The notes beneath the pieces were generated by a model, which saw nothing but the letters and a program-made list of their open reading frames with translations, was not told where the DNA came from and ran no database searches. A DNA stretch of 64,000 nt from Phycisphaerales bacterium UBA1161 (GTDB lineage Bacteria > Planctomycetota > Phycisphaerae > Tepidisphaerales > Tepidisphaeraceae), in contig DBZL01000014.1 in the NCBI GenBank assembly GCA_002311745.1, positions 159,638-223,637 on the forward strand, written 5' to 3'. Position numbers and translations under genes: made by a program. Of the stretch, positions 7,458 through 40,572 are shown one piece after another. Each line of letters begins with the position of its first letter. The stretch's first letter is position 1.

Positions 7458-7531
7458 CGTTCCCGGCGGGAGTCGAACCCGCAACCTTCGGCTCCGGAGG
7501 CCGACGCTCTGTCCAATTGAGCTACAGGAAC
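7458..7531 (-). tRNA. tRNA-Arg (anticodon CCG)
   Basis: A full cloverleaf can be drawn by hand. The acceptor GTTCCTG pairs with CGGGAAC (one G-U). The D stem is GCTC/GAGC with AATTGGACA in the loop. The anticodon stem TCGGC/GCCGA holds loop CTCCGGA, so the anticodon is CCG. The variable loop is AGGTT and the T arm is GCGGG-TTCGACT-CCCGC. The discriminator base is G, and CCA is not encoded. Confidence 0.93.
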
Positions 7532-37752: not shown

Positions 37753-38559
37753 ATGATCGCGACGAGAAAAGGGCTGCGCTCGCTTGCCGGGGGCGGGATG
37801 ATGGCGTGTCTGTTGCTGGCCTGCGGCTGCGCCAGCCGGGTCATCGCCCCAGATGCGCCCAACACGGTGATCGTCGTGCCGGGGATCGGCGGCGACGCAG
37901 ACGAATACACCACAGCGTGCCGCGCCCTGGCCGATGCCGGCAGCCGTGACTGCCTGCAAGTGTTCGACTGGGGACTGAAATGGCCGCTGTTTTTCCTGAC
38001 CATCTCCTGGCCGGATTTGCACGAGCACACCGAGATCAAACTGGCCGCCCTTATCACCCGATGGCGTGCGGCGCATCCGCAGTCGCGCATCGTCCTGATC
38101 GGCCACAGCGCCGGCGCGGGCGTGATCCTGGGCGCGCTGGCGCGGCTGGATGATCGCGTCGGGGAGGTCGGGCCGGTCATTCTGCTCGCTCCCGCCGTTT
38201 CGCCGGATTATCAACTGAAACCCGCCCTGGGCCACGTCCGGGTCATTCACGTCTTTTACAACAAGGATGACGACTTCTGGCAGGGAATCGGACCGGCGAT
38301 CTTCGGCAACTACGATGGCGCACACCGCAACGGGGCGGGCAAACGCGGATTCACCCTAACCGGCCTCGACGCCGATCAGCGCACGAAAGTCATCCAACAT
38401 CCGTACCAGAAAGAGTGGGACAAGCTGGGCCAGCACGGCGGGCACTTCGATTGGCTGGCCCATGATTTCGTGGCGCGCGTGCTGATGCCGCTGGTCGACG
38501 GCACCGCCCCGACCGCGGATGCAGCCCGCACATCGCCTTTACCCCCAGGTTCGTGGTAG
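37753..38559 (+). CDS. Lipoprotein alpha/beta-hydrolase
   Basis: 268 aa from ATG 37753. The signal peptide ends in a lipobox (LLACGC), so the mature protein is lipid-anchored. The nucleophile elbow GHSAGAG, an N-terminal VVPGIGGDADEYTTA oxyanion region and a C-terminal HGGHFDWLA segment with the likely catalytic His make an alpha/beta-hydrolase. Substrate unknown; lipase- or thioesterase-like family members exist. It is divergent from hemQ, and the vapC gene starts nine bases after its stop. Confidence 0.8.
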   Translation: MIATRKGLRSLAGGGMMACLLLACGCASRVIAPDAPNTVIVVPGIGGDADEYTTACRALADAGSRDCLQVFDWGLKWPLFFLTISWPDLHEHTEIKLAALITRWRAAHPQSRIVLIGHSAGAGVILGALARLDDRVGEVGPVILLAPAVSPDYQLKPALGHVRVIHVFYNKDDDFWQGIGPAIFGNYDGAHRNGAGKRGFTLTGLDADQRTKVIQHPYQKEWDKLGQHGGHFDWLAHDFVARVLMPLVDGTAPTADAARTSPLPPGSW

Positions 38560-38562
38560 TAT
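38557..38562 (+). promoter_or_regulatory. -10 box of a leaderless vapC transcript
   Basis: TAGTAT overlaps the hydrolase stop codon and ends six bases before GTG 38569. No ribosome site is present. Confidence 0.4.
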
Positions 38563-38568
38563 TTCATC

Positions 38569-39204
38569 GTGGCGAAGGTCTACCTCGAGACCAGCTTTTT
38601 TTCGGCGTGCGTCAGCACGCGCAAGAGCAACAAGAGTATCGGCTGGCGTGCCTCGATCAACGAGTGGTGGCAACGGCATGCGCGGTATTTTGAGCTATAC
38701 GTTTCGCCGGAAGTCGTCCGCGAATTGGCTGCACCGGAGTTTCCCAACGGTACCAAGGCCCTTGCCATGATTCGAGGGTTGCAAACGTTGAAGTTGACGC
38801 CCGAGGTGCTGGACTTTGCCGAGCTGCTTGTAACGCATAAAGTAATGCCAAGCCCCGCAGTGGAAGGCGATGCCCTGCACGTGGCCGTAGCTGCCGTTCA
38901 TGGCATGGACTATCTGCTGACGTGGAACGTCATGCATTTAGCCAATCCGAACAAGCGTACGCACCTGGCGATCATTTGCATGCAGTTGGGTTTGACAGCG
39001 CCACAGATCGTAACGCCGGATATGCTGCAGGAGAGCGAAAGTGAACACTCCACCCCCATAGGGGGTGGCTTCAGGAAGGCCCCTCGAAGGGGCCGTCGGC
39101 GTCAACGGCCAAACACGACCATTGACGCTTTAAGCCGCAGTGAGCAATCGACGTTTCAAATGCCATCGGCAGGAACGGTTCCCGCCGGACATCGGTTGCG
39201 ATAG
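38569..39204 (+). CDS. PIN-domain toxin (VapC family), C-terminus extended into a mobile element
   Basis: 211 aa, GTG start. The PIN domain has its acidic residues in VYLETSFF (E7), VEGDALHVAVAA and GMDYLLTWN; family members are Mg2+-dependent RNases. The native protein probably ended at about residue 159 (QESESE). The remaining 52 residues (HSTPIGGGFRK...) are basic, do not resemble PIN proteins, and are read out of the palindromic element inserted at 39045. Removing the element restores GAA-TGA, which overlaps the next gene's ATG by four bases. So the toxin carries a junk tail that may affect activity. Confidence 0.82.
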   Translation: MAKVYLETSFFSACVSTRKSNKSIGWRASINEWWQRHARYFELYVSPEVVRELAAPEFPNGTKALAMIRGLQTLKLTPEVLDFAELLVTHKVMPSPAVEGDALHVAVAAVHGMDYLLTWNVMHLANPNKRTHLAIICMQLGLTAPQIVTPDMLQESESEHSTPIGGGFRKAPRRGRRRQRPNTTIDALSRSEQSTFQMPSAGTVPAGHRLR

Positions 39205-39327
39205 TCGCTCCGTGTCACCGTGCGTCTTGCGGCAACGAGAGTTTCTCTTTCTCTTGCAGACGTTTGGCACGCCGGAACGGCAGAGCCTAAACGCGTCCAC
39301 GGCCAGAGGCCGTGGTTTCATGTAGTA
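39045..39327. mobile_element. IS200/IS605-like palindrome-ended miniature element (no transposase)
   Basis: 283 bp bounded by two hairpins of identical geometry, eight-base perfect stems with three-base loops: CCACCCCC-ATA-GGGGGTGG (39050-39068) near one end and CCACGGCC-AGA-GGCCGTGG (39297-39315) near the other. A third hairpin (GGCCCC-TCGAA-GGGGCC, 39078-39094) is next to the first. There is no ORF and no target duplication. Subterminal hairpins, no TSD and absence of inverted terminal repeats are hallmarks of IS200/IS605 elements and their miniature derivatives. Boundaries are fixed to within one base by the reconstructed gene overlap on either side. Confidence 0.72.
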
Positions 39328-39531
39328 ATGACTAAGCCCGCACATAGGGACCAAACGCCCGTTGACGATGTACGGCGCATCCGCCAGCGTCTGAGTCGCG
39401 AAGCGCACGGCGACGTGCGCAAATTGGCAGAATTGTCGAACCGGGCCTTCGAAAAGCCCCGGGGAAAGCTGAAGCTCAAACCCGCGGAGCCGCCTACGCG
39501 TAAGGACCGCCGCAACGGGACGAGAGGCTGA
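39328..39531 (+). CDS. Putative VapC-cognate antitoxin
   Basis: 67 aa starting at the first base after the palindromic element. VDDVRRIRQRLSREAHGDVRKLAELSN resembles a small antitoxin family (VxEVRxIRxxLxxExxxDVxxL...) that pairs with PIN toxins in planctomycetes and cyanobacteria. The C-terminus is basic. Without the element its ATG would overlap the vapC stop by four bases (ATGA), the usual coupled arrangement. Now it is about 124 bp past the extended vapC stop, so coupling is lost and a new promoter would be needed. The antitoxin call is inferred from context and the N-terminal pattern. Confidence 0.62.
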   Translation: MTKPAHRDQTPVDDVRRIRQRLSREAHGDVRKLAELSNRAFEKPRGKLKLKPAEPPTRKDRRNGTRG

Positions 39532-39690
39532 GGAAGCCGCGCGGTCCTCACAAACTTACGCGCGTGCAGATGAATTGTCAATTGGAAGCAACCAGCCCCG
39601 GCAAAATCGAGGGTTGAACATTCGGATCGCCACAGCGCTCATACGACTGCCCGCTGAGCCGGACTTTCGGATCATGCCTTCGCGGGGGCA

Positions 39691-40572
39691 TCAGGCCTTC
39701 ATTTCCGGCACGTATCCGACGATGGTGATGCGGTAACGGTCGGCCAGCTCCAATACCTTGGTCTTTTCCAGGATGATCGTCTTTCCCGGCTCCAGGACCA
39801 GAGCGGTGGCGCGGGCGGCGTGAAGCTTTTCGATCGTCGTCGTGCCCACCGTGGGAACGTCCAGGCGCAGGTCGCGATGAACGTTGGACACCTTGATCAG
39901 GGTCCATCCCCCCACTTTGCACAACTGTCCGGCCCGCTCGATCATCGCGTTGGTCCCCTCCACCGCCTCGACGGCAATCACGTTTTTGTCGACGACGGCC
40001 AGGGATTGACCGATGTCCAGTCGGCTGATGACCTGGCACAAATCCCAGCCGAAGCGAATGTCCTCCCACTGCTTTTCGGCGGGAGCGCGCTGGGTGAGGA
40101 TGCCGGCGCCGGCGAGGTGTTCAGCACAATACATCGTTGAGTCGATCAAATGGATGCCCTCGGAAGCCAGTTCCTGGTCGATGACTCGCAACACGGCCTG
40201 GTCGCGCTTGTCCCGGTGAAGTTTGCGCAACCACACTTTGAGCGTCCGCAGGTCGGGAATATACCGAAACGTCCGCCAGCGGCTATATATTTTTTCCTTG
40301 GCCACGCGGCCGACGAGGATGGCCTCGCAGCAGCCCTGGGACTTCAGGACGCGAATCCATTGCCCCATGCGGACGATGCCGACCCATTTGAAAACGTCCA
40401 CTTCGTCGCGCAGCTCGGGCCAGGCGTAGCCGCTGAAGGCGGCGGCGACCACCTTCCGCCCGGCGGCGCGAGCCCCGCGAGCCACCAGCACCGGAAAAAC
40501 CCCCTCCCCGGCAATCAGGCCCAGAGGAGTATGGGAATGCCCCGAGGCAACGGGGACTGGGGGCTGCGTCAT
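39691..40572 (-). CDS. lpxI: UDP-2,3-diacylglucosamine pyrophosphatase LpxI
   Basis: 293 aa. The family (DUF1009) pattern is complete: PLGLIAGEGVFPVLVARGARAAG at the N-terminus, LRTLKVWLRKLHRDKRDQAVLRVI in the middle, and the C-terminal domain with DIGQSLAVVDKNVIAVEAVEGTNAMIERAG and DLRLDVPTVGTTTIEKL. It makes lipid X in lipid A biosynthesis, pointing to an outer membrane with lipopolysaccharide. It is isolated from other lpx genes, with a TAAGAT box eight bases before the start. Confidence 0.93.
   Translation of the reverse strand: MTQPPVPVASGHSHTPLGLIAGEGVFPVLVARGARAAGRKVVAAAFSGYAWPELRDEVDVFKWVGIVRMGQWIRVLKSQGCCEAILVGRVAKEKIYSRWRTFRYIPDLRTLKVWLRKLHRDKRDQAVLRVIDQELASEGIHLIDSTMYCAEHLAGAGILTQRAPAEKQWEDIRFGWDLCQVISRLDIGQSLAVVDKNVIAVEAVEGTNAMIERAGQLCKVGGWTLIKVSNVHRDLRLDVPTVGTTTIEKLHAARATALVLEPGKTIILEKTKVLELADRYRITIVGYVPEMKA

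What the first reader, a model, noticed from the sequence alone, without database searches (positions are those of the whole stretch)
39030..39345. Palindrome-ended mini-element inserted exactly in the 4-bp stop/start overlap of a vapC-antitoxin pair
Deleting 283 bp between GTGA(A) at 39044/45 and (A)TGACTAAG at 39328 rebuilds GAA-TGA for the toxin and an ATGA overlap with the next gene, as in coupled toxin-antitoxin operons. The element has matched 8-bp/3-nt hairpins at both ends and no target duplication, as IS200/IS605 derivatives do. The insertion adds a 52-residue basic tail to VapC and uncouples the antitoxin, yet the lineage is alive. The toxin may therefore be attenuated, or the antitoxin re-promoted by the element.
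Basis: partly seen in the sequence, partly recalled or inferred. Interest (0 to 1): 0.72.

Follow-up and report, generated by a model that had tools for sequence, protein, structure and literature searches.

The report
IS200 mini-transposon inside toxin–antitoxin pair
A 287-base, gene-less offshoot of an IS200-type jumping element has landed at the junction of a bacterial toxin-like gene and its antitoxin-like gene, giving the toxin a new tail and leaving the antitoxin's reading frame whole; the kind of element is known and the landing spot is the curious part.

Summary
Window 39040-39326 (287 bp) is a non-autonomous IS200-type element. Both ends match an element of about 665 bp in another genus that encodes an IS200 transposase. 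Transposase-free copies lie in two further genera. The last 54 residues (158-211) of the 211-aa VapC-like protein are element-encoded: 0 of the 119 other listed homologues (of 1685 found) carry such a tail, and 34 examined relatives end at the equivalent of residues 153-163. No same-species empty allele was seen; the own, 79.5%-complete assembly has one copy.

Two corrections. End pentamers, tnpA orientation and same-genome copy pairs favour the minus strand as the transposed one, so the antitoxin's ATG is probably native target flank. Whether the ancestral overlap was 4-bp ATGA is undecided: relatives use two phases (14 and 11 of 34).

Attenuation or re-promotion is unsupported: no sigma-70-like promoter was found. 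The PIN core is predicted confidently, the tail disordered. New member of a known kind in an unusual place.

The parts
39040..39326 (-). Non-autonomous IS200-type element (287 bp), preferred boundaries; given as minus because tnpA reads that way in the 17 distinct related copies that hold one
   Evidence: Ends shared with L003 and with transposase-free copies; boundaries from pentamer conservation and same-genome pairs; tnpA orientation 17 of 17. Alternative: 39045-39331 if the plus strand is the transposed one.
39040..39044 (+). Left pentamer AGTGA (TCACT on minus), inferred element-borne cleavage site
   Evidence: In 4 same-genome pairs of near-identical left ends position 4 of the pentamer is the same; in one of them (G333) position 1 differs
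39050..39068 (+). Left hairpin, 8-bp stem, 3-nt loop
39078..39094 (+). Second subterminal hairpin, 7-bp stem, 3-nt loop
   Evidence: many related left ends have a palindrome at the same place (not counted)
39297..39315 (+). Right hairpin, 8-bp stem, 3-nt loop (the transposase-side end of related copies)
39327..39331 (-). Right pentamer AATGA (TCATT on minus), inferred target site, contains the antitoxin ATG
   Evidence: T and final A in 29 of 29 rows used of 35, no conservation beyond (offsets chosen by eye); position 4 differs between near-identical copies in two of three genomes
38569..39204 (+). VapC-like PIN-domain toxin gene, 211 aa; residues 158-211 are element-encoded
39328..39531 (+). 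Small downstream antitoxin-like gene, 67 aa
   Evidence: the same frame is open upstream to GTG 39220 (103 aa)

Best explanation
A transposase-less IS200 derivative (MITE, also called PATE) was moved in trans by an IS200 Y1 transposase as single-stranded DNA. It was inserted on the minus strand 3' of a TCATT pentamer, which is the complement of AATGA and spans the antitoxin's start codon. That leaves the antitoxin's ATG and everything after it native. The toxin loses its last residues and stop and reads 54 codons into the element. The PIN core stays intact with a disordered basic tail. Antitoxin translation is no longer directly coupled to the toxin stop (123 nt gap), so it depends on initiation at ATG 39328 or re-initiation at GTG 39220. 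Shown: homology of the ends, a related element with transposase, the tail's origin, open frames. Inferred: strand, trans-mobilisation, effect on expression and toxicity (most likely a weakened or neutral toxin-antitoxin pair).
For: Both ends are homologous to those of an element of about 665 bp in G019 whose ORF is an IS200 transposase: Pfam Y1_Tnp 3.6e-34, NCBIfam transpos_IS200 1.3e-39. Copies without a tnpA match: about 300 bp in G004, about 430 bp with a truncated right end in G003. Query L003: matches in 32 of 397 class genomes, own included (only 2 candidates per genome were scored and some matches are short). tnpA reads opposite to the window orientation in 17 of 17 distinct copies. Right pentamer: T and A in 29 of 29 rows used, at most 0.14 bits per position beyond. 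Near-identical copies differ inside the right pentamer in G209 and G363; at the left, position 4 is constant in G350, G205, G323, G333. Toxin homologues end near residue 159 (0 of 119 others with the tail; 34 of 34 examined loci at 153-163). Tail predicted disordered, core blocks at 87-98 pLDDT. The protein's 90%-identity cluster spans 3 sequences and 23 contigs (members not read), which speaks against a single-assembly artefact.
Against: One copy only in its own, incomplete genome and no tnpA like that of L003 there at E<=0.001. Its six Y1_Tnp matches (5 over the cut-off) have frames of 172-249 aa that look RAYT-like by eye (not tested). No same-species allele without the element was found. 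The boundary call rests on a few same-genome pairs and on offsets chosen by eye; one left pair (G333) differs at pentamer position 1, one right pair (G215) does not vary inside the pentamer, and one right-end row (L043) has no recognisable pentamer. The phase of the antitoxin start in relatives does not decide the boundary (14 against 11 of 34).
Confidence: 0.8

Rival explanations
1. Same IS200-type element, but the plus strand is the transposed one: element 39045-39331, target AGTGA at 39040-39044, and the element brings the antitoxin's present ATG in its own terminal pentamer.
For: Left and right pentamers are similar, so both readings give 287 bp; a T-N-A-ending pentamer is conserved at the right end of 29 of the 29 rows used, as an element-borne end would be; in G215 two copies share the whole pentamer.
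Against: tnpA orientation in 17 of 17 copies (that IS200 elements transpose the tnpA-sense strand is recalled, not tested); position 4 of the right pentamer varies between near-identical copies in G209 and G363 while the left one does not in four genomes.
Confidence: 0.16
2. It belongs to REP/RAYT palindromic repeats rather than to IS200.
For: Own genome carries Y1_Tnp genes with long frames that look RAYT-like by eye; palindromic ends.
Against: The transposase that shares the ends scores 135 bits against the IS200 model and 23 bits against the REP transposase model (cut-off 80); the element is about 290 bp with two different ends; single copy in the genome.
Confidence: 0.03
3. The tail is an old, selected domain of this toxin lineage and the hairpins are coincidental.
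For: The cluster of the 211-aa protein spans 23 contigs.
Against: 0 of 119 other listed homologues carry it; the DNA under it is shared with IS200 ends elsewhere; predicted disordered.
Confidence: 0.02
4. The element supplies a promoter for the antitoxin, or the tail attenuates the toxin, and this is why the insertion was tolerated. Compatible with the best explanation, not exclusive of it.
For: The insertion moves the toxin stop 123 nt from the antitoxin ATG; both frames stay open.
Against: 0 sigma-70-like sites in 38400-39700 (other promoter types are not covered); no activity data.
Confidence: 0.25

Closest known systems
IS200 group of the IS200/IS605 family (Y1 HUH transposase)
   Same: Subterminal hairpins, no perfect target duplication, a conserved pentamer beside one end, ends shared with an element encoding an IS200 transposase
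   Different: No transposase in the window copy; the inferred target is TCATT-like and not the TTGAT of ISDra2 or the TTAC of IS608 (those as given in PMC8612924, passages read)
PATE (palindrome-associated, ends-only IS200/IS605 elements; PMC7290912, passages read)
   Same: Ends-only element, presumably moved in trans
   Different: Sits at a toxin-antitoxin junction and extends a protein; whether that is unusual for PATEs was not surveyed
VapC-like PIN toxin with the antitoxin gene downstream
   Same: PIN family (21 of 46 aligned homologues match PF01850 at E<=0.01); a small antitoxin-like frame recognised by motif directly downstream in 25 of 34 relatives
   Different: Toxin has a 54-residue element-encoded tail; stop and start no longer overlap

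Membership tests
IS200-derived MITE/PATE | Ends homologous to those of an autonomous IS200 element | tested here: met
   L003 shares both ends and encodes an IS200 transposase
IS200-derived MITE/PATE | Subterminal hairpin at each end | tested here: met
IS200-derived MITE/PATE | Inserted next to a conserved tetra- or pentanucleotide, no perfect target duplication | tested here: met
   end pentamers AGTGA and AATGA agree at 4 of 5 bases
IS200-derived MITE/PATE | No transposase of its own | tested here: met
   No transposase frame in the element; no match of the L003 TnpA in the own genome
IS200-derived MITE/PATE | Further copies and element-free sites | tested here: inconclusive
   Copies in other genera and element-free homologous junctions, but one copy in the own genome and no same-species empty allele
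IS200-derived MITE/PATE | Excised and inserted by an IS200 TnpA | not testable with these tools
   needs an excision assay
REP/RAYT repeats | Associated with a REP-type tyrosine transposase | tested here: not met
   End-sharing transposase is IS200 type (135 bits against 23 bits for the REP model, cut-off 80)
VapC (PIN-domain toxin) | PIN domain | tested here: inconclusive
   Window protein alone is below the cut-off (PF01850 E 0.02, 15.9 bits against 23.6; none at 0.01); 21 of 46 aligned homologues match at E<=0.01; no VapC structure found by sequence
VapC (PIN-domain toxin) | Conserved acidic residues | tested here: met
   E52 and D101 invariant, E7 nearly invariant in 46 sequences, numbered on the window's protein; that these are the catalytic residues is recalled
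VapC (PIN-domain toxin) | Adjacent antitoxin gene | tested here: met
   (motif-based, 25 of 34)
VapC (PIN-domain toxin) | Toxic RNase neutralised by the antitoxin | not testable with these tools
   no assay

The most novel reading that the evidence does not exclude
This IS200 sublineage may be tuned to gene junctions: its target pentamer on one strand is the complement of AATGA, which spans start (ATG) and stop (TGA) signals, so insertion spares the downstream start codon while its own outer pentamer can supply a TGA stop to the upstream gene. In two of the four copies with an NTGA-type left pentamer (L005 and L006; not L002, where only 27 codons are open, nor the window) that TGA ends an upstream open frame of 368 and 89 codons. 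In the window it would have rewired a toxin-antitoxin pair by separating stop from start and adding a basic tail to the toxin.
Probability: 0.12. Interest if true: 0.5.

Novelty: new member of a known kind. Interest (0 to 1): 0.3.

Why it matters
It looks like a natural case of an ends-only single-strand transposon landing at a toxin-antitoxin junction without breaking the antitoxin frame. It offers a natural test of whether stop-start coupling is needed to keep such pairs in balance, and of how ssDNA elements with stop/start-like targets reshape protein ends.

Tried and rejected
Rfam gave no match over the element at gathering score and three chance-level ones at E 3.6-6.9. The window element had no match among phages or plasmids; the 25-base end pattern had none in the viral collection. 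The L003 element found 4 plasmid records with partial matches, 3 of them under annotated IS200/IS605 tnpA. A first regex collection of ends was too strict and was replaced by profile searches of the loci already fetched, seeds included. In the pentamer table 29 of the 35 right-end rows were used; the six dropped were L043 (no recognisable pentamer), L065 (contig end), L005 (truncated end), L135, L138 and the second L115 row (a left-type end). Offsets from the hairpin foot (15-19 nt) were chosen by eye, so the final A is partly by construction; the absence of conservation beyond it is not. Of the 36 left-end rows 4 are right-type or doubtful hairpins. The left pentamers were placed by regular expression and are misplaced in some rows (for example L048, L072, L078); I rely on the same-genome pairs. 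I considered using the phase of relatives to decide the ancestral overlap and rejected it (14 against 11 of 34, 9 without a recognised antitoxin). The class-wide search at E<=0.1 (122 of 397 genomes) is, judged by its E-values, mostly chance and is not used as a count. No solved structure of a VapC was found by sequence.

Papers: PMC7290912 and PMC8612924, passages only; all others only in search listings. I found no paper on an IS200 MITE at a toxin-antitoxin junction in the searches; since only listings were seen, this is weak.

Full report
WHAT IS THERE. The toxin-like ORF runs 38569-39204 (211 aa) and the antitoxin-like frame 39328-39531 (67 aa). Between them lie two perfect 8-bp/3-nt hairpins (39050-39068 and 39297-39315) and a third subterminal palindrome (39078-39094). 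Of 6 such 8/3 hairpins in the window these two are the only pair within 300 nt; 0 of 30 Markov simulations gave such a pair. The stretch folds more stably than all 200 dinucleotide shuffles, as RNA (z -4.0) and as DNA (z -5.2).

WHERE IT COMES FROM. A search of 61 genomes (own plus 60 relatives) found matches in 5, own included. In G019 (another genus of the same family) both ends recur in one element of about 665 bp (L003), which encodes a Y1 transposase of IS200 type (Pfam PF01797 3.6e-34; NCBIfam transpos_IS200 1.3e-39, 135 bits, against 23 bits for the REP-associated model). G004 holds a copy of about 300 bp (L002) and a left-end copy (L006), G003 a copy of about 430 bp with a truncated right end (L005); none of these three loci shows a match to the L003 transposase at 1e-10. 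With the L003 element as query 32 of 397 class genomes, own included, have a match at E<=0.001 (genomes drawn evenly from a larger group, two candidates scored per genome, some matches short or in tnpA only). The window's own genome (79.5% complete) shows one copy and no transposase like that of L003 (0 matches in G000). It does have six Y1_Tnp matches, five over the cut-off, whose longer frames look RAYT-like to me by eye (not tested with the NCBIfam model).

THE TAIL. The toxin search gave 1685 proteins, of which the best 120 are listed. The window's own cluster (P0001, 211 aa, 3 member sequences, 23 contigs; members not read) is the only listed one with the tail: 0 of 119 others carry it, one of them (P0112) being cut short before the junction. 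Those of unusual length that I read in full (P0007, P0010, P0025, P0086, P0111, P0118) are long at the N-terminus; P0097 has an N-terminal and a short C-terminal addition. The next best identity is 70%, so no same-species allele without the tail is visible. In the 34 loci of relatives examined the toxin stops at the equivalent of residues 153-163. AlphaFold2 with 46 sequences gives a confident core (block means 87-98 for residues 1-150), 71 for 151-160 and 47-63 from residue 161 on. The element-coded part is very basic (pI about 12, 11 K/R against 3 D/E).

WHERE THE ENDS ARE. Profile searches of the fetched loci gave 36 left-end and 35 right-end rows (a few rows are the other end's hairpin). 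At the right end a pentamer ending in T-N-A begins 10-14 nt after the hairpin: T and final A in 29 of the 29 rows used, and at most 0.14 bits of conservation per position beyond (six rows dropped and offsets chosen by eye, see Tried and rejected). At the left end the motif is mostly AATCA, with AATGA, GATGA and AGTGA in the window's closest copies. In 17 of 17 distinct copies with a transposase match, tnpA reads opposite to the window orientation; in the 14 where the right end was also found it begins beside it. So the window's minus strand is the tnpA-sense strand. Near-identical copies from one genome show which pentamer belongs to the element. On the right the fourth base differs in G209 (L045/L046) and G363 (L077/L142) and not in G215 (L040/L042). 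On the left it is the same in G350, G205, G323 and G333, although in G333 the first base differs. The element-borne pentamer should not vary between fresh copies, so I take the left one as the element's and the right one as target. This gives 39040-39326, with the antitoxin's ATG in the target flank. The plus-strand alternative (39045-39331) stays possible (0.16).

THE NATURAL JUNCTION. In 34 related loci the antitoxin frame was recognised by motif in 25: 14 in one phase (for example L087 and L092 with a start 5 nt before the toxin stop; L085 8 nt before) and 11 in the other, 9 of these with the 4-nt ATGA overlap (L088, L091, L098 and others). The three closest relatives with a recognised antitoxin (L085, L084, L087) are in the first phase; L086, about as close as L087, was not recognised by the motif and shows an ATGA at its stop by eye. 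The pre-insertion gene is not rebuilt here.

WHAT IT DOES. Inference: the antitoxin must now be translated without the toxin's stop beside its start, either from ATG 39328 or by re-initiation at GTG 39220, 15 nt after the new toxin stop, in the same open frame. The protein collection lists the 67-aa form (P0121) and one relative of 69 aa; a 103-aa form did not appear. No sigma-70-like promoter was found in 38400-39700, and terminator-like sites, the right hairpin among them, are at chance level (2 found, 1.7 expected). The PIN core, with E7, E52 and D101 conserved, looks intact. The most likely outcome is a retained but weakened or neutral pair; this is untested.

KNOWN OR NEW. The structure fits an IS200/IS605 ends-only element as described in PMC7290912 (no terminal inverted repeats, no target duplication, insertion 3' of a tetra- or pentanucleotide, PATE elements; passages read) and PMC8612924 (single-strand insertion 3' of TTGAT or TTAC; passages read). 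It is a new member of a known kind in an unusual place. On re-checking, the odds of the best explanation went from 0.82 to 0.80 because the 23 contigs are those of a cluster whose members were not read and because one close relative (L086) shows the ATGA phase.

Noticed in passing
L004 (G042:C474) about 800-850 and L037 about 1490-1535: Solo-hairpin relics: a left-type tip and a right-type tip around one shared hairpin, about 45 nt in all, in two genomes of different families.
   Followed up: partly
L003 1470-1497 and 2181-2208: The autonomous IS200 copy lies between two 28-bp inverted repeats, each holding an 8-bp palindrome; one arm overlaps the target pentamer.
   Followed up: no
L005 about 1104-1108 and L006 about 1549-1553: The TGA of the left pentamer ends an upstream open frame of 368 and 89 codons; seen in 2 of 4 copies looked at (L005, L006; not L002, not the window).
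   Followed up: partly
window 39220-39531: The antitoxin frame is open upstream to a GTG 15 nt after the extended toxin's stop, a possible 103-aa form.
   Followed up: partly
L157-L162 (own genome, six places): Six Y1_Tnp matches with frames of 172-249 aa that look RAYT-like by eye, unlike the IS200 transposase of L003.
   Followed up: partly
window 7458-7531: tRNA gene on the minus strand, the only Rfam match at gathering score in the window.
   Followed up: no
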